DNA of 37,901 nt. Origin: a virus. The DNA is taken from IMG/VR virus record IMGVR_UViG_3300013233_000027, positions 1 to 37,901 of that record. One strand, 5' to 3'. Position 1 is the stretch's first letter. Each line of letters begins with the position of its first letter. The position numbers and the translations under genes are program-made. This document shows positions 795 to 32,224 of this stretch, one piece after another. The notes under the pieces are model-generated. The model worked only from the letters and a program-made list of their open reading frames with translations. It made no database searches and had not been told where the DNA came from.

Positions 795-2999
795 CTATCC
801 TTTGAAACTTGCGCATTTACTATGAAACTTTATTGGAATATCACCAATAGCACCATTTCTGTTTTTACCAACAATCAATAAAGCGTCCTCGATTAAGTCC
901 TTTCCCTTATTAGCTCTATATGGAAATAATATTAAATCAGCATCATTTTCAACTGCACTACTATCACTAAGGTTTGCAATCGTTGGTTTACATCCGTCTG
1001 CTTCCCTGTTCAGTTGTGATAACAGGATAACAGCGCAATTAAGCTCCTTAGAAGCCCCTTTAAGCGCTCTTGTCATGTCTGCAATCTCTAAGTGTCGTTT
1101 CTTTGTGCTATCGCCTTTAATAAGCCCTAGATAGTCGATAAGTAGAACATCCAATCCTTGATGTTTCTTATGCTTTCTAGCTTGTGCAATAATCTTAGGC
1201 ACTGTCATATTACTATCATCGTTCACGAACAATTTAAGCTTTGTCATATCTTGCGTTGCAACTGCTGCATTACTCCAAACTTCCGAAGGAAAGCTTTCCG
1301 CTGTGCGCAATGACATTAAGTTCAGGTTTGATAATGTGCTTGTTACACGATACCCAATAGAAAGCTTATCCATTTCAATAGAGTTAAAGCATACATTATT
1401 CTCTTTTGCCATGTGTATTGCCATATCCATAGCAAGGCTAGTATTATGTGTGACTGTATAATCACCCACTACATATAAGCATGTGCCATGACTAACAGAT
1501 ATACATTGCGCTTCTTCATCGCCAATATATTCAATACTCTCAATATTAAGATTTCGAACGCGCTTTGTTCCAGTTAGTCGTTCAAGTTTATGAGGAATTG
1601 TAACAAACTGTTGCTTGTTCTCATGGCTAATATATAAGCAGTAATTCCTTTTCCCTAGCTTCTTTTCTCCTTTGTATGTGTATTCTGGGATTCTGCTACT
1701 CATCGAACAAAAGCAACCCAATCCTCTAGCTAATTTTTGCACATCAATAGCAAGCTGCTTACTAGATGTTGAGTATGTCATGTTGTTTGATTTTTCAACA
1801 GTCCCGTCTGTATCCATTAAGCCATTCATTAAAGCTAAACGAGTTTCCTTAGTGGCAGAAAAATATTGTTTTGGAATGAATTTTGATGTTGATTTACAAC
1901 CAATCAAACCAAACTCTTTAAGCTTATTTAGTAGCCAGTTATTTTTACCCTTAGTGGTTGTTAATGAATAATCAATAATACTTTTGCCATGAAGCTTTAG
2001 CTCTACATCACCTAACATTGGTTTAATTTTATTCAGGATGAAGTCATGGCTTGTTGTAAGCTTAACTGTATTGGTTAGGCATCCATCCCCAATCAATACA
2101 CCAAGTAAATATGGATGAATATCAATATCTTTATCAACACCAAACTCGCCAATAATTCTAGGTATAAATAGCTTTTTATTGTAGCGATAGCATTTATTCT
2201 TCTCAATCAATTCTCTTGTTGTTAATGTCCGAAACTCGCCCCAGTGGTGACTCTTAACGCTCCATTGGTGGTCAAGTCCTGCGTCAACTGTTCGCCCATC
2301 ACTTAACTTAATTCTATAAATAGGCTTCTCACCTTGAGGAAATACACCTGTCACAACAGATTCTTCCCCATCAACACTTGCTACTTTATCACCAATCATA
2401 ATATCTCCCATGCGTATAGTACTACCACATGAAAGTAACACTTTTGTATCTAAAGTCAACTCTTTACCCTGTGACGCTCGTGCAGCAATGATGGTTAAAT
2501 TCTGCCGTTCAAGCCCTCCAATCATTGTATCCAATGCTTTGATACCAGTCTTGATAAATCTACTCGTACCGTTACCTGCAACTCGCTCACGCATATCATT
2601 ATAAACATCCAATGATACATCACCAATCTCTGAATAATCTGATGATGTTACAGGCTCATCAATATGTATTGAAGCAACTGCTTCACCCAATGTTGAGCCT
2701 GTCTTAATCATTGCCAATGCTTTGTGCATTTCCACTTCAAACACACGAACATTATAAGCATCTTTAATCTCTTTCTGAATTAAGCCATGTACTGACTGCT
2801 GACATTCATCAAGAGCTTCTTTGATTTCTGTTTCTGCTGATAGCTTTGTTGCAAGTTCAACAATATCAAAAGAGCCTTCCTGCATAGCTGCAAATATATC
2901 TCTATACTTAGCATTCTGAAAATGTGCAGGGGTAAGTTCTGATAATCCAATCAGAGTTTCATTCATCAATAGATTTCCAATATAACCTGCTTCATTCAT
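795..2999 (-). CDS. Replicative DnaB-family helicase with in-frame intein
   Basis: The 734-aa precursor unwinds DNA at the phage fork after splicing to about 394 aa. Residues 1-100 resemble the DnaB N-terminal domain. The RecA-like ATPase core starts near residue 150. The Walker A loop (ARASQGK^TSLAMD) is split after Lys179 by a 340-residue intein (180-519). After it come Walker B (DVLLIDYLGLI) and the SQLNRE...NLSDSSAVENDAD segment typical of DnaB. The start is ATG 2999, with GGAG 7 nt upstream and a 1-nt overlap with the loader gene. The spliced length is slightly short for DnaB (about 450), which is common in phages. Without splicing the P-loop cannot form, so splicing should be essential for replication. 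Confidence 0.93.
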   Translation of the reverse strand: MNEAGYIGNLLMNETLIGLSELTPAHFQNAKYRDIFAAMQEGSFDIVELATKLSAETEIKEALDECQQSVHGLIQKEIKDAYNVRVFEVEMHKALAMIKTGSTLGEAVASIHIDEPVTSSDYSEIGDVSLDVYNDMRERVAGNGTSRFIKTGIKALDTMIGGLERQNLTIIAARASQGKELTLDTKVLLSCGSTIRMGDIMIGDKVASVDGEESVVTGVFPQGEKPIYRIKLSDGRTVDAGLDHQWSVKSHHWGEFRTLTTRELIEKNKCYRYNKKLFIPRIIGEFGVDKDIDIHPYLLGVLIGDGCLTNTVKLTTSHDFILNKIKPMLGDVELKLHGKSIIDYSLTTTKGKNNWLLNKLKEFGLIGCKSTSKFIPKQYFSATKETRLALMNGLMDTDGTVEKSNNMTYSTSSKQLAIDVQKLARGLGCFCSMSSRIPEYTYKGEKKLGKRNYCLYISHENKQQFVTIPHKLERLTGTKRVRNLNIESIEYIGDEEAQCISVSHGTCLYVVGDYTVTHNTSLAMDMAIHMAKENNVCFNSIEMDKLSIGYRVTSTLSNLNLMSLRTAESFPSEVWSNAAVATQDMTKLKLFVNDDSNMTVPKIIAQARKHKKHQGLDVLLIDYLGLIKGDSTKKRHLEIADMTRALKGASKELNCAVILLSQLNREADGCKPTIANLSDSSAVENDADLILFPYRANKGKDLIEDALLIVGKNRNGAIGDIPIKFHSKCASFKG
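1443..2462 (-). other. Class 3-type intein with LAGLIDADG endonuclease
   Basis: Residues 180-519 of the helicase precursor. Block A begins ELTLDTKVLL, with Glu at position 1 in place of Cys/Ser. Block B has DHQW (His244, Trp246). Block F has AQCISV (Cys499). The C-end is VTHN followed by Thr+1 (Thr517, His518, Asn519). Trp at B:12, Cys at F:4 and Thr at G:5 are the WCT signature of class 3 inteins, which use the block F Cys as first nucleophile and do not need Cys1. Dodecapeptide endonuclease motifs LLGVLIGDG (298-306) and LMNGLMDTDG (390-399) indicate an intact homing endonuclease. The insertion site is the P-loop, between Lys and Thr. Confidence 0.92.
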
Positions 3000-19495: not shown

Positions 19496-22380
19496 GTGAA
19501 TTCCTTGACGGACTGACAAAGCTCCCTCGCAACCTTGTGGGTGGGGCTGCCGTTAGTCTTGGTGCAGACCAAGAGAAAGTTCAAGAGACGCTAGGGCTTA
19601 ATGAGAAAGCTCCAGAGTCATTTTTTGATGATATTGTTGCCCATCCAACAAAATATATAGGGGAAGCAATCCCTTATATGTTTCTTCCGTCAAAGCTTGT
19701 TCGCAAGACAATCAGTAAACTAACTGGTGTTGGTCATAAACTTCCCACTAAGGGCGTTAAAAGCCGCAGAGAGCGTCTTAAAGACAATCTTGATATGGCA
19801 GCAACCTTCGGTGCTTATGGTGCAGTAGATGAGCTTGCAAGCGCGCAGGTTCAAGGGCGTGAAAGTCATGCAGTCGAACATGCAGGGGTCGATGCAGGAC
19901 TAACTCTTGCACTGGCAGCATTAACGCATGGTGCTATTCGTGGTTCTTCCATGCTAAAGAGCAAGGCTCAAAAGAGTAAATATGTTAAGGATATATTTAG
20001 AGAAGCAGGACTTGATTCAAAGTTAGCCACAGATATTATAAACATGACTGAAGCTGATAGGGCTGTTGCTCTGAATAACCTTAATAAGCAAATTGATTCA
20101 AGCAGAAACTCAATTCATGGTGCTATCTTGGGTGCGCAACCACATGCTAAGTTTGGTGAACCCACCAAGACTGGATTGTTTGATAGCCTATTCGGTAGCT
20201 ATTCCCCGAACAGCAACATTGAAAAGATTGTTGTTGGCAACAAAAGACCACCAATGAAAGACATTGAAGGTGATTACTTCGATGCTCACACTAAAGATGC
20301 TATACAGAATATTCGTAATGCAGGTGATGTTATGGATAGTTCATTGAACACAACCCTTAGACATTCACACAATCTTGGCTTGAGTATTCGCGAAGCTATA
20401 CCAGACCCAAAGGTCAGAGCTAAGATTACAAGAGCGTTAGATGTGAACGGTGAACGAACATATAATATGCTAACCCCTTATGAAAAAGGTGTTTCTGATA
20501 ATATTCGTATATATTTCAATGACTTATCTGGCTTACTGAATAGAGCTAAGATAATCAATGGGCATCGTGAGAACTATATACCCCACCTTCTAAAAAATGA
20601 GGATGGAGAACCAACATCATTTCTTGATGAAATTGGTAAGCGTTCACACATATCCAAGAATACTGCACGCTCAAAAGAGCGTGTTGATGAGAGACCTTTG
20701 CATGAGAAAAAGAATGCAGTTACATTGGATATATCAGAGCTTGTTGATTTATATGGTCAACAGGTTAGTCGTGCAGCAATCATGCGCAATGTATTTGATA
20801 AGGTTGATTTCTCACTAATCAAGAATACAGGCGGAAAGGTTACACATGCAACGCATCCAACACTGGTTGCTGAATACCTTAAAGTGTTAAGAGCAAGCCG
20901 TGATGAAACAATCAAGCATAAGACCAAAGGCTTAACGCCAAACCAAGCTGAAAAGGTTAGGGCCTCCTTACTAAAAGAGCATGGCTCATTCGATGAAGAA
21001 TTGAAGAAGCTAAGTCTTGATGTTCATCCAGATTATCTTCCATCATTGGATATGCTATTCAAAGCAACAAACATAAATGATATGACCAAAGCAGCAGTTG
21101 CAGTCAATGCAGTTAGCAAGCGTATGCTTATATTTGGCTCATTGTTCCATTTCAATGCCTTGAGTGAGAGTAGCTTATTTGCAGGTGCAGGTGGTATGGG
21201 TGCAATGCTTAAAGGTGCAGCAGTTGGTTTTGTTGGTACAGGTTTTAATCCTCTTGGTGCTGCCGTTGGTGCAGGACTTGGTGCAGGCATAAGTTCATTG
21301 GTTAAGACTAAGGGTATATCAAATGCAATGCGTCATGGTGAATATGGTGATAGCTATGATTTTGCTTTGCGATACATTGATATTAAACCTCCACGCGATG
21401 TTGATAATGATGCGTTCTATGGCGCTATTGGTGATGTTCAGAATGTTATTGATAAGCATGTGCCATCTGGGCTTGCTAAAGGCGCTCTTAAAGACGGCAC
21501 GGCAGCCATAGGCGGCATTAACAAAGCTATTGATGTTCTTATGTGGGATAGGCTTATGAGCGGCTCTAAACTCGTTGTGTTCGAGAAGAAGCTTGAAGAA
21601 CTAACAATCAAGAATTTAGACAATGAAGTTAGCAAACAGCTAAGCCAACATGAGCTTGCTACTATGGCAGGGCAGTTTGTTAATGATGCCTTTGGTGGTC
21701 AGAACTGGCGTAAGCTAGCTGAGGGTGTTGATAACGCTTTCGGGCGTAAGATTGCATCAGCAATGGCTACCCCGAATGGTAAAGTTTGGACAAACCTAAT
21801 TATGTTTGCACCAGATTGGACTATTTCAAATGTTAGAATCCTTGCTAAGGCGTTCCCCGGAATAAACAAGAACAAACTTAGCCGTCAAATGTACCAACGC
21901 TATGCTGTACGAGCAGCCATATATTATATGATTATGGGAACAGCAGTTCAGCAAATGCTTACAGGAACTAATATATGGGATAATGACGACCCAACACGAT
22001 TGGACTTGGGCGATGGTAGACAAATGTCATTTAGTAAGCAGTTGAGTGAGCCTTTTAAGTGGGTTATAGACCCAATACATGAAGCTAAGGTTAAGCAATC
22101 ATCTATTCTGAAAGGTATTGAAGAACAGGTGACAAACCAACAATACACTGGTGCTAATGGTCATGCTCCAGAGATACGCCGTGACAATGATACAGGCATT
22201 GATATGGTAGGAAATTCTTTAATTGTTGCAGGACAACATTTTGCCCCTATATTTGTGCAAGATTTATCACGCAATGGTTTGGATGGTGTGTATGGTTTCT
22301 TTGGTCATCCTGTATATGGCAAGATAAAGCACAAGCCACAAGAGAATGAAGGCGTTGTGATGGAGATTGATAATGGTTAA
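19492..22380 (+). CDS. Large internal virion / DNA ejection protein, 962 aa
   Basis: The largest protein encoded here. The N-terminal third is helical. Residues about 545-606 form a glycine-rich hydrophobic hairpin (AGGMGAMLKGAAVGFVG...AAVGAGLGAGISSLV), and residues 803-822 a second hydrophobic helix (YAVRAAIYYMIMGTAVQQML). The C-terminal part (FAPDWTISNVRILAKAF, then GDGRQMSFSKQLSEPFKWV) is a recurring feature of very large phage internal proteins. It probably threads into the inner membrane to build the ejection channel. I see no lysozyme or transglycosylase catalytic motif. Start overlaps the previous stop (ATGA). Confidence 0.65.
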   Translation: MSEFLDGLTKLPRNLVGGAAVSLGADQEKVQETLGLNEKAPESFFDDIVAHPTKYIGEAIPYMFLPSKLVRKTISKLTGVGHKLPTKGVKSRRERLKDNLDMAATFGAYGAVDELASAQVQGRESHAVEHAGVDAGLTLALAALTHGAIRGSSMLKSKAQKSKYVKDIFREAGLDSKLATDIINMTEADRAVALNNLNKQIDSSRNSIHGAILGAQPHAKFGEPTKTGLFDSLFGSYSPNSNIEKIVVGNKRPPMKDIEGDYFDAHTKDAIQNIRNAGDVMDSSLNTTLRHSHNLGLSIREAIPDPKVRAKITRALDVNGERTYNMLTPYEKGVSDNIRIYFNDLSGLLNRAKIINGHRENYIPHLLKNEDGEPTSFLDEIGKRSHISKNTARSKERVDERPLHEKKNAVTLDISELVDLYGQQVSRAAIMRNVFDKVDFSLIKNTGGKVTHATHPTLVAEYLKVLRASRDETIKHKTKGLTPNQAEKVRASLLKEHGSFDEELKKLSLDVHPDYLPSLDMLFKATNINDMTKAAVAVNAVSKRMLIFGSLFHFNALSESSLFAGAGGMGAMLKGAAVGFVGTGFNPLGAAVGAGLGAGISSLVKTKGISNAMRHGEYGDSYDFALRYIDIKPPRDVDNDAFYGAIGDVQNVIDKHVPSGLAKGALKDGTAAIGGINKAIDVLMWDRLMSGSKLVVFEKKLEELTIKNLDNEVSKQLSQHELATMAGQFVNDAFGGQNWRKLAEGVDNAFGRKIASAMATPNGKVWTNLIMFAPDWTISNVRILAKAFPGINKNKLSRQMYQRYAVRAAIYYMIMGTAVQQMLTGTNIWDNDDPTRLDLGDGRQMSFSKQLSEPFKWVIDPIHEAKVKQSSILKGIEEQVTNQQYTGANGHAPEIRRDNDTGIDMVGNSLIVAGQHFAPIFVQDLSRNGLDGVYGFFGHPVYGKIKHKPQENEGVVMEIDNG

Positions 22381-24019
22381 TAATGTTTTAGTGCCAATGG
22401 GTCAAATCATAGACACTCAAAATAGAAATGTTGAGGTTGTCACAGCAACGACAGGTCAAACAGTATTTTTATTGAACGCTGCACAATATGTTACAGGCAT
22501 GAATACACTTGATGTATATGTGAATGGACTTCATCAAAAGCCTTCTGCATTCGTTGAGACAAGCAATTCCTCTGTAACATTTAATGTTGGGCTTGCTGCA
22601 GGTGATATTGTTGAATTTGTGTCAAATGTTGTTGTGAACAATGGCAATATTGCAACGGCTGCGAGTACAAGTGCAAGTGCATCGGCAAATGCTTCAGCAT
22701 TATCAGCCTCAAATTCTGAACAATCTAACATACAATCAACTTCCAGCGCTTCTGCTTCTGCAACGAGTGCTACACAGTCTGCTTCTTCTGCAACGGCTTC
22801 AGCTAGTAGTGCTGCTGCTGCTTTGGTTAGTGAACAGAATGCAGCTTCAACTAAGTTTAGTGGTGAGATTGGAACACTGATGAACCCATTGGTTCATATT
22901 CCCTTCAAGCGTCAAGATGATGAGCAGGCGTTGAGTGGTGTACAAACATTCGCAAGAGCAAGCATAGGCACATACATTGATGCTCTTGATGGGTTGGTTA
23001 AGACAGCAGCTATTGATGCTCCACGCTTTGAGAAGATGGCAGATGGGGAGACAGGGATATTGCTAGAGGGTGCAAGTACGAACTACTTCCCACAATCACA
23101 GCTTGCTACAACATTTAACAGTGGTGGATATACAAGGGCAGACAATACAATCATTGCTCCCGATGGCACATTGACTGGCGGCACAATCACAGCCGCAGCC
23201 CTTAATGCCTACAATGGCGTGCTTGTAACACCTCCTGCTCCGATTGCAGGGAAAACATATACAGCGTCTATGTGGATTAAAGCCACCAATCCTGTCGATG
23301 TCGGACAGCTATGCACATTCTTCTTGTATGAGGATTTGGCTAATGTATCAAGTGTGCAAAATACAATAACAGCAGGATGGCAGAGAATAACTATCACACA
23401 TACAGTTGACCCATTGGCTATAGTGACAACATTGTTATTCCGTATTGATGCAAGAACGAGTGGCACAGCATTGATTGGTGAGAGCCTTGATGTATGGGGT
23501 ATGCAGCTAGAAGCCCTTCCATCAGCAACATCCTACATTCCTACATTTGGTGTTCCTGTGACAAGGGCAGAAGATTATTCAACTATTGGCATCAGTGGCA
23601 ATCGTAAGAAAGCACATGATACAGTTTCGTATGTGATTGATTATGATACAACGGTTAAGAATACGGACGGTGTTATTTGTAATGTTGTAAATCTTGGCGT
23701 TAATGAAGACCATATGCTTATTAGACATTCATCAGGTTTCTCGACATCCGCCCAAATATATATGGGAAGCAGTGATTTTCGTTACTTCAATACCCCTCCA
23801 TCTAATACAGTTAACAGAGTTGTAGTTGTCATGAATGGTGCATTGGGTGAAGTTTTTGTAAATGGTGTGTCTAATGGAACTAGAACATTTGCAGCAACAG
23901 TCGGTGTTTCAACACTCATTCGGTTTGGTGGTTGGAATATTACAGAATTAAATGGTCATATCAGAAACTTCAGAATATACGACAGAGCATTAACCGCGTC
24001 TGAAGTGGCAGCGGCATAG
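22373..24019 (+). CDS. Tail fibre/tailspike with LamG-like C-terminal domain
   Basis: 548 aa from ATG 22373, chosen because GGAG lies 7 nt upstream; a TTG 6 nt earlier is in frame. Residues 1-90 look like a virion-attachment beta domain (TLDVYVNGLHQKPSAF). Residues about 95-158 are an almost pure Ala/Ser/Thr/Gln helix, probably a trimeric stalk. From 165 onward two jelly-roll-like stretches (PLVHIPFKRQDDEQALSG; GILLEGASTNYFPQSQ) lead to a concanavalin/LamG-type ending (IRNFRIYDRALTASEVAA). It probably binds host surface glycans. Confidence 0.75.
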   Translation: MVNNVLVPMGQIIDTQNRNVEVVTATTGQTVFLLNAAQYVTGMNTLDVYVNGLHQKPSAFVETSNSSVTFNVGLAAGDIVEFVSNVVVNNGNIATAASTSASASANASALSASNSEQSNIQSTSSASASATSATQSASSATASASSAAAALVSEQNAASTKFSGEIGTLMNPLVHIPFKRQDDEQALSGVQTFARASIGTYIDALDGLVKTAAIDAPRFEKMADGETGILLEGASTNYFPQSQLATTFNSGGYTRADNTIIAPDGTLTGGTITAAALNAYNGVLVTPPAPIAGKTYTASMWIKATNPVDVGQLCTFFLYEDLANVSSVQNTITAGWQRITITHTVDPLAIVTTLLFRIDARTSGTALIGESLDVWGMQLEALPSATSYIPTFGVPVTRAEDYSTIGISGNRKKAHDTVSYVIDYDTTVKNTDGVICNVVNLGVNEDHMLIRHSSGFSTSAQIYMGSSDFRYFNTPPSNTVNRVVVVMNGALGEVFVNGVSNGTRTFAATVGVSTLIRFGGWNITELNGHIRNFRIYDRALTASEVAAA

Positions 24020-24027
24020 GGGGTAAT

Positions 24028-24414
24028 ATGTTTGACTTAATCACATACACAAAAGACAGCGTAGCATTCTTAGCAGAGGTTGTTGCAAAGTTCCCTGATA
24101 AGGTTGTGTTCGATGAGCAAGACCCAACACTTGCATTGAGTGTCCTCATCACTAAAACCCCAACCATTCGCAATGGCAATGAAACTTTAGCAGTTGTTCG
24201 TTGTGACGCTCAAGAGTTGGCAGACATTAAAACACTGACAACAGTTGTTATACTTTCAGAGGTTGCTCTTGGTGGTGACTTACTCGCAGCTATGACTACA
24301 GCCAATCGTGCTATTTATGACAGCGTACACAGTCAAGCCCCTGTCACCTACACTGACCAAGATGGTGTACAACATACATACACCCCTCCTGCATTGATTG
24401 GGGCGTTTGCATGA
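24028..24414 (+). CDS. Hypothetical 128-aa protein between fibre and membrane gene
   Basis: Soluble, mixed alpha/beta, with no recognisable motif. FDLITYTKDSVAFLAEVVAKFPDKVVFDE at the start and PVTYTDQDGVQHTYTPPALIGAFA at the end resemble small fibre-associated or tail-assembly proteins, but this is a weak impression. GGGGGTAAT before ATG 24028. Its stop overlaps the next start. Confidence 0.65.
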   Translation: MFDLITYTKDSVAFLAEVVAKFPDKVVFDEQDPTLALSVLITKTPTIRNGNETLAVVRCDAQELADIKTLTTVVILSEVALGGDLLAAMTTANRAIYDSVHSQAPVTYTDQDGVQHTYTPPALIGAFA

Positions 24415-27692: not shown

Positions 27693-28112
27693 ATGGCTTT
27701 ACAATATTCAGAAGCAGTACGCAACGCACAGTTAGACGCATGGGAAACAGGTATTGGTTTGTCCCCTGTATTACATTTATACGATGGTGCTAATCCTGCA
27801 ACATGCGCAGGTGTTCCAACAGCTAACATTATTGCAACAGGTACATTTCCTGCCGACTGGAGCACAGCAGCAGCAGCAGGTGTTAAAACAATCTTAGGCG
27901 CACCATTCACGGTTACTGGTGTTCCTGCCGCAGCAGCAGGCACTACAGCAGTTGCCTATCGCATTTATGATACAACCAACACAGTTTGCCATGAGCAAGG
28001 TGTTGTAAGTATTACAGGTGGTGCAGGTGATTTAACTATGGATAACACCAATGTTGCTGATGCTCAAGTGTTGTCAATCAATACAATGACACGCACATCT
28101 GGAAACGCATAA
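27693..28112 (+). CDS. Virion structural protein, collar/tail decoration family (copy A)
   Basis: 139 aa. MALQYSEAVRNAQLDAWETGIG followed by PVLHLYDGANPA is a widespread opening in small phage structural proteins that lie near fibres. The rest is a compact beta domain ending in LSINTMTRT. AAGGAG lies 9 nt upstream. The next gene has the same layout, so the pair looks like a tandem duplication. The role (fibre attachment or decoration) is not established. Confidence 0.65.
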   Translation: MALQYSEAVRNAQLDAWETGIGLSPVLHLYDGANPATCAGVPTANIIATGTFPADWSTAAAAGVKTILGAPFTVTGVPAAAAGTTAVAYRIYDTTNTVCHEQGVVSITGGAGDLTMDNTNVADAQVLSINTMTRTSGNA

Positions 28113-28122
28113 GGGGCTATAA

Positions 28123-28539
28123 ATGGCTTATTCAATTTCAATAGCAGCAGCTAACACAGTGTTGGATACATTACTTACAAACTTCGCTAATGGCGTGATT
28201 GAGGTGAGAGATGGTGTTCGTCCTATCGACAGCGATACAGCAGCGACAGGGGTTGTACTCGCTACTATTCCATTGGGTGCAACGCCATTTAATGCGGCTG
28301 CATTACGCAGTGCAGCACTTGCTACGCCTGTGAGTGACCTTGCAGGTGACGCTAATGGTAGTGCAACATGGTTTCGTATGTATGACAATTCATTCACTCC
28401 CAATGCAATCAATATCCTTGATGGTGATGTTGGCATTGTAGGCAGTGGTGCTGATATGGAATTGAACGATAACTTGGGCGGTACAGCTATCACTACAGCA
28501 GATAAGGTGACAGTTGATACAATGGCTGTGTCTGTATGA
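28123..28539 (+). CDS. Virion structural protein (copy B, paralog of 27693 gene)
   Basis: 138 aa. IAAANTVLDTLLTNFANGVIEVRDG aligns with the start of the preceding protein, and DVGIVGSGADMELNDN...VTVDTMAV aligns with its C-terminal beta strands, at the same spacing and length. The two are divergent tandem paralogs. AAGGGG precedes ATG 28123. Probably pairs with copy A in the virion. Confidence 0.65.
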   Translation: MAYSISIAAANTVLDTLLTNFANGVIEVRDGVRPIDSDTAATGVVLATIPLGATPFNAAALRSAALATPVSDLAGDANGSATWFRMYDNSFTPNAINILDGDVGIVGSGADMELNDNLGGTAITTADKVTVDTMAVSV

Positions 28540-30050
28540 ATAGTGTCGAATTAAAGCATCACATTGCGAGTGCTGAGATGTACTTGCAAGAAGGTAATAT
28601 GTTTGCAGCAGAGCATGGTTTTAATATCGTGCTTGAGAGTGATGCAGATAATAAGGATGCTTTGGTTGGGCTTGCTCATATTGCTCATGCGAATGGGCAT
28701 GACACTACAGATATGGCTAATAAGCTTCTTGAGTTGTACGGCGATGAGCCACCTGTTGTTGCGGTGTGTGGTACATTGCTTGATGATAGAGAGTTAATAG
28801 CGCGCTCATACAATATGAATTGTAAAGATGCTAATGTTGCTATTGCATATGCAAAGATATTGATTTCAGAACATCGTTCAGTTGATGCTTCGATTGTGCT
28901 TAAAGAGATTGGTACAGGTGACAATTTAGAACTCAAGCTTGCAGTGGCAGAACTCTTGGTTGAATGCTCAGAGATTGAAACATCGTGCAAGCTGCTTGAG
29001 ACTATTCTGAAAGAACGCCCCGATAGTTGGATTGCATATTGCCATGCCTTGCCGTTATTCGACCATGCAAAGAATGACACATGCAACGCCGATACAGTGA
29101 AGGCTATCATTGCTCGACTATCCACACCAAAGGATAAGCTACCTATGCTAACCAATGGCTTAGGACGCTTGCTTGATAAGCGTGGTGATGTTGAGGGTGC
29201 TTGGAAAGCTTACGATGCGTCTAACGCGATTGTGAAGCCTTTACGCACTAACTATCCAGACTATCGTGCCATCGAAGAACGCTATGAGAAAACATTTACA
29301 GCAGACTTCTTTGAAGAATTGCCTAAAGCTTCTGATAGCCCAATGATATTTGTGTTCGGTATGCCAAGAAGCGGTACAACACTAACTGAGCAAATCTTGG
29401 GCAAGCATTCAGACATTACAGCATTGGGTGAACTTATGGCTGTTCCTAAGTCTGGCAACATCTTTGGTGAGTTGTGGCAGCAGGGTAGTGACGATGTTCC
29501 TGCAAACCCCGACGAACTAGCAGAGCAATATCTTAAAGAGCATGTTCGTTCATTCGATACAAAGTATGCAGTGGATAAGATGCCTGCAAACTTCAAGTTC
29601 ATTCCATTGATTTATGCAATGTTCCCTAATGCTAAGTTTGTTTATTGTAAGCGTGATGCGTTGGATAATTGCTTCTCATGTTTGACTACGCTGTTTGCTA
29701 ATCGCCATGACTACAGCTTTGACCAAGTTGAACTAGGTAAAGAATACAACCATCATCTATGGCTCATGCACAAGTGGCGTGAGTTGTTGCCGCGTGGAAC
29801 TATCCATCAAGTCAATTACGAAGATATGGTTGCAGACCAAGAGGGAACGACACGCAAGCTTCTTGACTACATTGGTGTGGATTATGAAAAAGATTGTAAG
29901 GACTTTCACACATTGAAACGCAATGTGCGTACGGCTTCATTGGCACAGGTTGTAAAGCCTATGTACACAACAAGCGTGAGCCGTGCAGAACCCTACAGAA
30001 AATACTTAACAGATTTAATTGAGGTGCTTAATGCCAATTCCGAGATTTAG
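28536..30050 (+). CDS. TPR-sulfotransferase fusion
   Basis: 504 aa. Residues 1-235 are TPR-like helical repeats (EMYLQEGNMFAAEHGFNIVL; GDVEGAWKAYDASNA). Residues 268-490 are a PAPS-dependent sulfotransferase: 5'-phosphosulfate loop FGMPRSGTTLTEQIL (274-288), VDKMPANFKF (346-355), 3'-phosphate site FVYCKRDALDNCFSC (Arg373, Ser381), and the closing RTASLAQVVKPMYTTSVSR. All key residues of the bacterial Sulfotransfer_3 type are present, so it should be active. It would move sulfate from PAPS to a glycan or to tyrosine. Its place inside the adhesin cluster suggests a virion or cell-surface substrate. Confidence 0.88.
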   Translation: MNSVELKHHIASAEMYLQEGNMFAAEHGFNIVLESDADNKDALVGLAHIAHANGHDTTDMANKLLELYGDEPPVVAVCGTLLDDRELIARSYNMNCKDANVAIAYAKILISEHRSVDASIVLKEIGTGDNLELKLAVAELLVECSEIETSCKLLETILKERPDSWIAYCHALPLFDHAKNDTCNADTVKAIIARLSTPKDKLPMLTNGLGRLLDKRGDVEGAWKAYDASNAIVKPLRTNYPDYRAIEERYEKTFTADFFEELPKASDSPMIFVFGMPRSGTTLTEQILGKHSDITALGELMAVPKSGNIFGELWQQGSDDVPANPDELAEQYLKEHVRSFDTKYAVDKMPANFKFIPLIYAMFPNAKFVYCKRDALDNCFSCLTTLFANRHDYSFDQVELGKEYNHHLWLMHKWRELLPRGTIHQVNYEDMVADQEGTTRKLLDYIGVDYEKDCKDFHTLKRNVRTASLAQVVKPMYTTSVSRAEPYRKYLTDLIEVLNANSEI

Positions 30051-30381
30051 AACAAGAGCCGAAGTCCGTACAGCTTATCCACTAGCACAGTTGTTTGATG
30101 ATTTGGTTGTGTATGTTACCAATAGCAAGCTTGAGAAAGCTGCGTCACGCACTGTTACGAAAGCCCAGTTAAAAAGCTTTGTCACAGCAGCTAAGGCTTA
30201 TGCACTTGGCACACCGAACGGTAAGCTTGATAGGTATGATGTGTTCAGTGTGTTGTTTCGTGAGATTGATAAGTGTACAAACGGTAGACCAACGACAGGT
30301 GTTGCAAGTATTCTTCACACTTGGTCATTGGATAAGAACACAATTCTTTATATGTTTGACTCACGCTATGGGGGTAAATGA
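30031..30381 (+). CDS. Hypothetical 116-aa protein after sulfotransferase
   Basis: Start chosen at ATG 30031, with GAGGTG 4 nt upstream, overlapping the sulfotransferase end by 20 nt; a TTG at 30019 is in frame. The protein is basic and helical (KLEKAASRTVTKAQLKSFVTAAKAYALG), ending with SILHTWSLDKNTILYMFDSRYGGK. No family recognised. Possibly a partner of the sulfotransferase or an adhesin chaperone, by position only. Confidence 0.65.
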   Translation: MPIPRFRTRAEVRTAYPLAQLFDDLVVYVTNSKLEKAASRTVTKAQLKSFVTAAKAYALGTPNGKLDRYDVFSVLFREIDKCTNGRPTTGVASILHTWSLDKNTILYMFDSRYGGK

Positions 30382-31763
30382 TGGCTAAGTATTTCGGTAT
30401 CGTAGGTGCAGCAGCAACAACGCTTATGCCAGGCTTTGTAACTCCTGGTGCGGCAACACCCAAGACTGCAAACACAGCCCTTACAAAGAACGCGGCATGG
30501 AAAGACCATCTTATCCTTGCTCCAGTACAGAACACAGCTTTAACCGCGCCTGCAAGTGCAGGTGGTGGTATGACTGTATCATCGACAACACAGCTTATGA
30601 GTGGTATTGCAACAGGGGCAGCAACATTTTATTCGGTGGGTAGTCTCTGTTTGGGTGCTGCATACACCAAAGCAACTAAAGTACAGATTGATAAGTTTCG
30701 TGGTTCATTAAAACGCTCTGCAAGTCATAAGTATTTCATTGATGCTTACTCCGTGAATGGTGCAGGCACGGCTTCAACGCGTGTTGCTTCTGTTCAGTTA
30801 GGAACATACGCAGGTAGTCCTAGCTCTTGGGTCAATCCTTCCGCAAGCTTCACGCCTGCTTCGACTAAGGTTGTAACTGTTCCTGCAGGTGGGCATTTAG
30901 TGATGCGTGCAGTTGGGAATGGCGGCACATCTAGTGGCATTAAGTTCACTACAGGTTGGACAGCAGGCGGCTTAGCAGCAGCATATATCCTAATCACAAC
31001 AGAAACAGCAGCAGTAACAGGCGACCCGAATGTTATTCGTGACCGCTATAACGACAGTACAGGCAATCCAGTTCCAGACGGTGTGAAAGTTTATGAGTAT
31101 GATGCTTCGACTATGCAGCCTACAGGTAATGTAGGTGTGATTGGTGGTGCAGCAGTAGGTGTTCCCGACCCATTGATTGCTCCTACAGCTACAGGTGTCG
31201 GTGAAGTTGTGTTCACGCATACAGTGGCAGACTTAACAGAGTATTTTTATGTTATCCCCGACATGGCGAATGGTGTTGCTTGGACAGCTACAACAGCCGT
31301 TGCATTGGGTGCTAAGATGAACCCTGCAAATGTGGGCAAGCTTACAGCAGTGTGTACCGTTGCAGGTACAACAGGAGCAACAGAGCCAGTGTGGTTTAAT
31401 CTAGGATTGGTTAAAGGTTCAACTGTTGTTGATGGTACAGTGACTTGGACAATGGAAGATACAGAAACAATCTGTACGGCAAGTATCTTATCACGACAGC
31501 AGTGGCATTGGACTACAGGTAAGGCAGTGTTGAATGCTTCTGATGCAGTAGCCGCAGGTAACAACACAAACGATTACCTCTACCCACTAATAGCTGATGA
31601 GTTGTTATATGCTTATTGTACAACAAGTGGCACAACAGGGACTACAGAGCCAGCATGGGCATCATTACTAGCAACAGCAGGTAGTGCAGCCGCATTGGTT
31701 GGAACACTTGTAACTGATGGCACTGCGGTGTGGACAATAGGCATAGAGAGTGAGTATCAATAA
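30378..31763 (+). CDS. Tail adhesin with duplicated GTTGxTEPxW modules
   Basis: 461 aa (ATG 30378; ATG 30381 is equally possible). Residues 1-45 are Ala/Thr/Pro-rich. Residues 50-215 are a beta sandwich (YSVGSLCLGAAYTKATKVQIDKF) of the lectin-like kind seen in phage fibres. Two similar modules follow at about 296-358 (CTVAGTTGATEPVW ... DGTVTWT) and 386-453 (CTTSGTTGTTEPAW ... DGTAVWT), a repeat type common in carbohydrate-binding tail proteins. It follows the sulfotransferase block. Confidence 0.65.
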   Translation: MMAKYFGIVGAAATTLMPGFVTPGAATPKTANTALTKNAAWKDHLILAPVQNTALTAPASAGGGMTVSSTTQLMSGIATGAATFYSVGSLCLGAAYTKATKVQIDKFRGSLKRSASHKYFIDAYSVNGAGTASTRVASVQLGTYAGSPSSWVNPSASFTPASTKVVTVPAGGHLVMRAVGNGGTSSGIKFTTGWTAGGLAAAYILITTETAAVTGDPNVIRDRYNDSTGNPVPDGVKVYEYDASTMQPTGNVGVIGGAAVGVPDPLIAPTATGVGEVVFTHTVADLTEYFYVIPDMANGVAWTATTAVALGAKMNPANVGKLTAVCTVAGTTGATEPVWFNLGLVKGSTVVDGTVTWTMEDTETICTASILSRQQWHWTTGKAVLNASDAVAAGNNTNDYLYPLIADELLYAYCTTSGTTGTTEPAWASLLATAGSAAALVGTLVTDGTAVWTIGIESEYQ

Positions 31764-32224
31764 TGGCTATTTGGTATGCTAAACAACAGGGGAATGCAGC
31801 AGGTGGTTGGAGTGCTGCAAACCCTGCCGCTCAAGGTGGGCTTCTAGCTAACGCTAGTGGCTCGCTTGGTTTGTTTGGTGGCAGTGCAGCAGGTACGGTT
31901 GAACAGCCTACAGTGAGGTATTATTGTGCGTCTGTTCGTATGGCTGATGGTACAGCCGCAGCAAATGGTACAACAGTTCATCTTCATCATATCAATGGTG
32001 ATAAGCATGCTTCGTATCCAACAGGCTTAACCACACTCAATCACCCAACAGGACACCCAACCTATGCAACAACTGAGACAGGATGGATATGCTTTCAGAA
32101 TACAGCATTGATTGCAGACCAAGTTGATTTACATTTAACAATCTTACCACAAGGCAGCACAACACTTGAAAGTGGTGTATCAATCCTTGTAACTCCGCAA
32201 CTGACAAGTAACGGCAATGGCTGA
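31763..32224 (+). CDS. Tail-associated structural protein, 153 aa
   Basis: Gly/Ala-rich N-terminus (IWYAKQQGNAAGGWSAANPAAQGG) followed by a beta domain with several His (VHLHHINGDKHASYPTG). The start overlaps the previous stop and its own stop overlaps the repeat fibre. Composition fits a fibre or base protein; no family recognised. Confidence 0.55.
   Translation: MAIWYAKQQGNAAGGWSAANPAAQGGLLANASGSLGLFGGSAAGTVEQPTVRYYCASVRMADGTAAANGTTVHLHHINGDKHASYPTGLTTLNHPTGHPTYATTETGWICFQNTALIADQVDLHLTILPQGSTTLESGVSILVTPQLTSNGNG

What the first reader, a model, noticed from the sequence alone, without database searches (positions are those of the whole stretch)
28536..30050. TPR-sulfotransferase encoded inside the phage adhesin cluster
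All PAPS-binding motifs are intact in a 504-aa fusion of TPR repeats and sulfotransferase, flanked by two paralogous structural genes, a small unknown gene and repeat-type adhesins. Sulfotransferases are uncommon in small phages, and its place in the late block rather than among early metabolic genes is unusual. It could sulfate the fibres themselves, for example on tyrosine, or modify the host glycan to block superinfection. This would be a candidate virion or receptor modification system.
Basis: partly seen in the sequence, partly recalled or inferred. Interest (0 to 1): 0.85.

Follow-up and report, generated by a model that had tools for sequence, protein, structure and literature searches.

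The report
Phage tail-gene cassette encoding a sulfotransferase
This small aquatic phage carries an intact enzyme that attaches sulfate groups, and because unrelated phages keep the same enzyme locked between the same tail/fibre genes, it most likely chemically decorates the phage's own surface proteins rather than being random metabolic cargo, although its target has not been shown.

Summary
Window 28536-30050 encodes an intact 504-aa TPR + Sulfotransfer_3 protein (Pfam 1.7e-40). Its PAPS-binding and catalytic residues are conserved. An AlphaFold model (pLDDT 91.6) has tyrosylprotein sulfotransferase (TPST1/2) as its 13 best PDB fold matches.

It is not random cargo. Six distinct phage lineages carry it in one gene order: [phrog_3758 tail-region genes]-[TPR-ST]-[~110-aa helical gene]-[beta-rich structural gene]-[MAxWY protein]; one lineage is cut upstream. 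Window, L002 and L004 share the block although the window's terminase was not found in the L002 or L004 contigs. The phage STs form one clade (SH-aLRT 98) among bacterial TPR-STs; dN/dS is 0.04 for the closest pair. A sibling podovirus has one 783-aa protein at the same place. In 76 other phage loci with phrog_3758 neither ST nor the ~110-aa gene was found, so these two travel as an optional pair.

Some bacterial relatives sit beside flagellin genes (6 of 80 loci, about 0.6 expected).

Best reading: a protein sulfotransferase modifying the tail/fibre or decoration proteins encoded beside it. The substrate is inferred. Sulfation of host glycans for exclusion remains possible. Phage sulfotransferases are known, function unclear; the conserved structural cassette appears new.

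The parts
27693..28112 (+). phrog_3758 virion structural protein, copy a (139 aa)
   Evidence: PHROG hit 2.5e-15; 68-72% identical in L002, L004, L006; 76 further phage loci carry the family without ST
28123..28539 (+). phrog_3758 virion structural protein, copy b (138 aa), overlaps the ST start by 4 bases (ATGA)
   Evidence: PHROG hit 8.8e-18; family lies in the baseplate/tail-fibre or minor-tail region of annotated phages CKB-S1 and Charlie
28536..30050 (+). TPR-sulfotransferase, 504 aa: TPR helices about 1-260, Sulfotransfer_3 domain 269-451, conserved C-terminal TAS..QV motif 466-472
   Evidence: Pfam, PDB profile search, AF2 pLDDT 91.6, Foldseek top 13 = TPST1/2, dN/dS 0.04
30031..30381 (+). 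116-aa helical companion gene (TTG at 30019 is an alternative start); found only beside the ST
   Evidence: 69 and 66% identical in L004 and L006; diverged homologues beside ST in L097/L098, hhalign E 1e-4; not found in 76 ST-less phrog_3758 loci, in the 80 bacterial loci or in 385 genomes of one class; AF2 model low confidence, all helical
30378..31763 (+). beta-rich structural/decoration protein, 461 aa; candidate substrate
   Evidence: C-terminal repeats match phrog_20658 head decoration 9e-10; 63-97% identical in L002/L004/L006, 33% in L098; profile of window+L004 alone finds L098 at 2.9e-5
31763..32224 (+). 153-aa structural protein beginning MAxWYxR/K; candidate substrate or anchor
   Evidence: similar N-terminal motif at the same place in L004, L002, L006 (MATWF), L097 and L098
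32217..33074 (+). 285-aa repeat protein (repeats around Q-x-x-D-T/S), fibre or adhesin; longer (1085-1370 aa) in L004 and L002

Best explanation
The gene encodes a cytosolic, PAPS-dependent protein sulfotransferase that belongs to a tail/fibre (decoration) gene cassette. Made late, by translational coupling with the structural genes, it uses host PAPS. Its TPR superhelix, perhaps with the 116-aa companion, holds newly made cassette proteins (the phrog_3758 proteins, the 461-aa protein, or the WYxR/repeat proteins), and it sulfates exposed hydroxyl side chains (Tyr most likely, otherwise Ser/Thr) before assembly. The sulfates would change charge and binding at the virion surface, i.e. adsorption, stability or masking. 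Shown here: enzyme intact; fold and active-site residues; conserved linkage over deep divergence; single phage clade; purifying selection; optional ST + companion pair. Inferred: protein substrate, which protein, which residue, benefit.
For: Conserved order around the ST in six distinct phage lineages down to 32-36% ST identity; L097 is cut upstream of the ST, and L003 (same lineage as L002) is cut inside it. Window, L002 and L004 share the block, but the window TerL is not found in the L002, L003 or L004 contigs, so the block moves as a unit. The phage STs are one clade, SH-aLRT 98. dN/dS 0.04. Nearest solved relatives TPST1/2 by phmmer, profile and fold; TPR + transferase layout as in OGT/SPINDLY, which act on proteins. 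A sibling podovirus swaps the block for one 783-aa protein. Bacterial TPR-STs lie beside flagellin genes in 6 of 80 loci against about 0.6 expected, in about three lineages. L002 and L004 carry a second, different ST just after a 1059/1066-aa adhesin-like protein.
Against: No sulfated phage protein is demonstrated here and none turned up in the papers searched. Conserved linkage can also arise because late modules are exchanged whole. Sulfotransfer_3 motifs are shared by enzymes with glycan, lipid and small-molecule substrates; acidic Tyr sites such as KVYEYDA in the 461-aa protein are only candidates. The Arg residues near the TPST catalytic Glu (GEETRVIPR) are not kept (GELMAVPKS). The L097 copy lacks the K348 segment, so one phage copy may be inactive. 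Many phages use phrog_3758 without ST.
Confidence: 0.5

Rival explanations
1. The ST sulfates a host surface glycan (LPS, capsule) or other host surface molecule during infection, changing the receptor so that progeny do not re-adsorb or other phages are excluded; it travels with the adhesin genes because receptor binding and receptor masking co-evolve.
For: Linkage to tail/fibre genes fits a receptor-linked role as well. The window fibre at 22367-24019 has a ConA-like lectin domain, so the phage may bind glycans. Some phage STs of another subfamily sit among sugar genes (S-SRM01).
Against: Closest solved enzymes are protein sulfotransferases; TPR-transferase layout suggests protein substrates; no glycosyltransferase or other sugar gene was recognised in the window genes scanned; placement in the late structural operon is late for exclusion.
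Confidence: 0.22
2. The ST sulfates a glycan carried on virion or host filament proteins, as in the sulfated N-glycan of Halobacterium glycoproteins, rather than an amino acid.
For: Sulfated surface-glycoprotein glycans exist (PMC11980604). Bacterial TPR-STs lie beside flagellin genes, and many flagellins are known to be glycosylated (background knowledge).
Against: No glycosyltransferase recognised in the cassette or among the window genes scanned, so the glycan would have to be host-made.
Confidence: 0.13
3. It is metabolic or hitch-hiking cargo (auxiliary metabolic gene or moron) with a small-molecule or host substrate, carried along because late modules recombine as blocks.
For: Phage STs have been reported as auxiliary genes of unclear function (PMC10580990; PMC8290583). 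One viral TPR-ST (L196) lies outside any such cassette. 76 phrog_3758 loci do without ST.
Against: Same neighbours at 32-36% ST identity and a single phage clade; strict co-occurrence with the 116-aa gene; overlapping reading frames with structural genes; L196 was not placed in the tree and is only a weaker profile match (2.7e-39).
Confidence: 0.1
4. Decayed or non-catalytic TPR-ST scaffold acting as an assembly chaperone for the fibre proteins.
For: TPR domain; L097 copy lacks the K348 segment.
Against: All PAPS and catalytic residues intact in window, L002, L004, L006; dN/dS 0.04.
Confidence: 0.05

Closest known systems
Bacterial TPR-sulfotransferase family (PF13469 with N-terminal TPR; Alphaproteobacteria such as Thalassospira, Rhodospirillaceae, Roseibium)
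   Same: Same two-domain layout, 34-42% identity in the best local matches, same motifs and TAS..QV C-terminus
   Different: Phage copies form their own clade, sit in a tail/fibre cassette and have a 116-aa companion not found in the bacterial loci
Tyrosylprotein sulfotransferases TPST1/2 (PDB 3ap1, 5wrj)
   Same: Best PDB matches by sequence and fold; PAPS loop, catalytic Glu and Lys, 3' phosphate Arg/Ser in register
   Different: About 20% identity; no TPR, and membrane-bound Golgi enzymes in animals (background knowledge); peptide-site Arg residues not kept
phrog_27463 phage sulfotransferases (Synechococcus phages S-SKS1, S-SCSM1, S-SRM01)
   Same: Phage-encoded Sulfotransfer_3; a member sits just after an adhesin in L002 and L004
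   Different: About 270 aa, no TPR, separate subfamily; in the three cyanophages found at different positions
OGT / SPINDLY (TPR + transferase that modifies proteins)
   Same: TPR superhelix fused to a group transferase
   Different: Glycosyltransferase, not sulfotransferase; an analogy of layout, the catalytic halves are unrelated

Membership tests
Sulfotransfer_3 (PF13469) PAPS-dependent sulfotransferase | Domain match above the curated cut-off | tested here: met
   140 bits against 27
Sulfotransfer_3 (PF13469) PAPS-dependent sulfotransferase | 5' phosphosulfate loop PRSGTT and 3' phosphate Arg..Ser intact | tested here: met
   residues 277-282, R373, S381
Sulfotransfer_3 (PF13469) PAPS-dependent sulfotransferase | PAPS-dependent activity | not testable with these tools
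   needs an assay
Bacterial-type TPR-sulfotransferase | N-terminal TPR solenoid fused to the ST domain | tested here: met
   AF2 model, OGT-TPR profile match
Bacterial-type TPR-sulfotransferase | Falls inside the family tree | tested here: met
   nested among bacterial rows, own clade SH-aLRT 98 (quick tree, careful search unfinished)
Tyrosylprotein sulfotransferase (TPST) | Fold and catalytic Arg, Glu, Lys | tested here: met
   Foldseek top 13; R278, E299, K348
Tyrosylprotein sulfotransferase (TPST) | Arg residues near the catalytic Glu that hold acidic peptides (role recalled from TPST structures) | tested here: not met
   GEETRVIPR against GELMAVPKS
Tyrosylprotein sulfotransferase (TPST) | Sulfates Tyr of proteins | not testable with these tools
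   needs mass spectrometry
Auxiliary metabolic gene / moron cargo | Position independent of structural genes | tested here: not met
   fixed order in six phage lineages

The most novel reading that the evidence does not exclude
A dedicated, horizontally exchanged virion-sulfation cassette: a TPR protein-sulfotransferase plus a 116-aa companion that sulfates the tail/fibre proteins encoded beside it, which would make sulfated phage virion proteins and parallel TPR-ST modification of bacterial flagellins.
Probability: 0.4. Interest if true: 0.85.

Novelty: new variant of a known kind. Interest (0 to 1): 0.62.

Why it matters
[quoted passage not shown] This cassette turns that into a testable claim with a short list of substrates encoded next to the enzyme, and an optional enzyme-plus-companion pair whose presence or absence can be compared in related phages. 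If virion proteins are sulfated, it would be a new layer of post-translational modification at the phage-host interface. The flagellin-adjacent bacterial homologues suggest a wider theme of sulfated surface filaments.

Tried and rejected
Random cargo: rejected for this clade because the order is conserved, although one viral TPR-ST (L196) is cargo-like. Annotated phage collection: only a weak 24% fragment (AS-1), so no cultured phage in the records held carries it. Looking for the small gene in bacteria: none in 80 ST loci nor in 385 genomes of one class. Structure of the small gene: pLDDT 56, not worth a fold search. A genome scan with the most conserved phage-ST patterns found no bacterial relative; the 51-aa motif query worked. 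Papers on flagellin sulfation or on phage sulfotransferases and tails: nothing direct. The L097 deletion around K348 was noted and left as a possible inactive copy. dN/dS for distant pairs is saturated at synonymous sites.

Full report
WHAT IS THERE. The window is a 37,901-base virus record with a 239-base direct terminal repeat and a podovirus-like set of genes: TerL 8458, SU10-type portal 9931, SU10-type major capsid protein 13108, a 962-aa protein 19492, and a lectin-tipped fibre 22367. The finding, 28536-30050, is an intact 504-aa ORF. Residues 269-451 match Sulfotransfer_3 (1.7e-40). The N-terminal part is a diverged TPR solenoid: Pfam TPR models are below cut-off, but a five-sequence profile matches the OGT TPR domain (about 1e-10) and the AlphaFold model is helical there throughout (pLDDT 91.6 overall). 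The PAPS loop, E299, K348, R373 and S381 are conserved in nearly all of 32 relatives. By phmmer, profile and Foldseek the nearest solved proteins are human and tick tyrosylprotein sulfotransferases; other sulfotransferases follow well behind.

THE CASSETTE. Upstream lie two phrog_3758 paralogues. In annotated phages this family sits between baseplate and tail-fibre genes (CKB-S1) or just after minor tail genes (Charlie), so it is tail-associated although PHROG files it under head. Downstream come a 116-aa helical gene, a 461-aa beta-rich protein, a 153-aa protein starting MAxWY, and a repeat protein. The reading frames overlap, which points to one translationally coupled operon.

RELATED PHAGES. 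Scans of IMG/VR gave further copies: L002 and L003 (99% ST identity, probably one lineage), L004 (64%), L006 (64%), and the far-diverged L098 (36%) and L097 (32%). The order phrog_3758 / ST / about 110-aa gene / beta-rich protein / WYxR protein is kept in window, L002, L004, L006 and L098; L097 is cut upstream of the ST and L003 is cut inside it. The window terminase is not found in the L002, L003 or L004 contigs, and nucleotide similarity in the fetched loci is confined to the cassette, so the block has moved between different phages. Homology of the diverged companion genes was tested: hhalign gives E 1e-4 (probability 58%) for the 116-aa family against L097/L098, and a profile built only from window and L004 finds the L098 beta-rich protein at 2.9e-5. 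The ST and small-gene profiles that include L097/L098 are not independent tests of those two.

OPTIONAL PAIR. A scan with phrog_3758 copy a gave 80 loci; four are the cassettes above, and in the other 76 neither ST nor the 116-aa gene was found in the fetched flanks, up to 6 kb each side and often shorter. They carry other structural and repeat genes there. A sibling podovirus, L184 (portal 71%, capsid 61% identical), keeps the backbone up to the membrane gene at 24411 but has one 783-aa protein where the window has the cassette. So ST plus companion is an optional unit inserted in an exchangeable tail/fibre module.

EVOLUTION. In a tree of 113 ST domains the six phage STs form one clade (SH-aLRT 98), next to a Rhodospirillaceae sequence (quick tree, the careful search did not finish). 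The closest pair has dN/dS 0.04, so the enzyme is kept.

BACTERIAL PARALLEL. Among 80 bacterial loci, six (one Rhodobacteraceae, two Sneathiella-type, three Eremiobacteria-type) have flagellin genes beside the TPR-ST. Summing by hand, 46 of these genomes hold about 147 flagellin matches in about 197 Mb, so about 0.6 would be expected in the 746 kb of loci. The six are about three lineages in the tree, so the support is moderate. It suggests that TPR-STs repeatedly work on surface-filament proteins.

MECHANISM AND RIVALS. The best reading is a PAPS-dependent protein sulfotransferase acting on the cassette proteins during late infection; protein substrate, residue and benefit are inferred. Conserved Tyr sites with acidic neighbours exist in the 461-aa protein (KVYEYDA) but prove nothing. 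Host-glycan sulfation, sulfation of a glycan on a protein (precedent in Halobacterium N-glycans, PMC11980604) and cargo remain rivals.

NOVELTY. Phage sulfotransferases are known (cyanophage annotations) and described as of unclear function (PMC10580990). I found no report of this TPR type locked in a structural cassette, but subscription journals are mostly not in the library. I rate it a new variant of a known kind.

Noticed in passing
L002:6529-7341 and L004:4144-4953: Both phages carry a second, non-TPR sulfotransferase (phrog_27463 type in L004); in L004 it lies one small gene after, and in L002 directly after, a 1059-1066-aa adhesin-like protein.
   Followed up: partly
L002:9252-9587: A free-standing HNH endonuclease lies between the two phrog_3758 genes, just where 93% nucleotide identity to the window begins; homing may have driven transfer of the cassette.
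   Followed up: no
L200:9000-13109 and L197:9989-13103: Large phage contigs with several short sulfotransferase-like ORFs in a row; L200 also has an adenylylsulfate-kinase-like ORF (by eye), as if the phage boosts its own PAPS supply.
   Followed up: no
L099:6619-8349 and L100:2578-4267: Another phage type has a 194-199-aa sulfotransferase with a methyltransferase and a weakly MptE-like ORF inserted among what look like head-tail connector genes.
   Followed up: partly
window 795-2999 (-): DnaB-type helicase interrupted after the P-loop GK by an intein with homing-endonuclease domain; the intein lacks Cys1 and looks like class 3 (WCT) by eye.
   Followed up: no
bacterial loci L014, L049, L052, L061, L070, L079: TPR-sulfotransferases immediately beside flagellin genes in about three separate lineages; possible flagellin sulfation.
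   Followed up: partly
L097:1-1296: Phage ST copy with an in-frame gap of about 36 residues that removes the catalytic Lys segment; possibly inactive.
   Followed up: no
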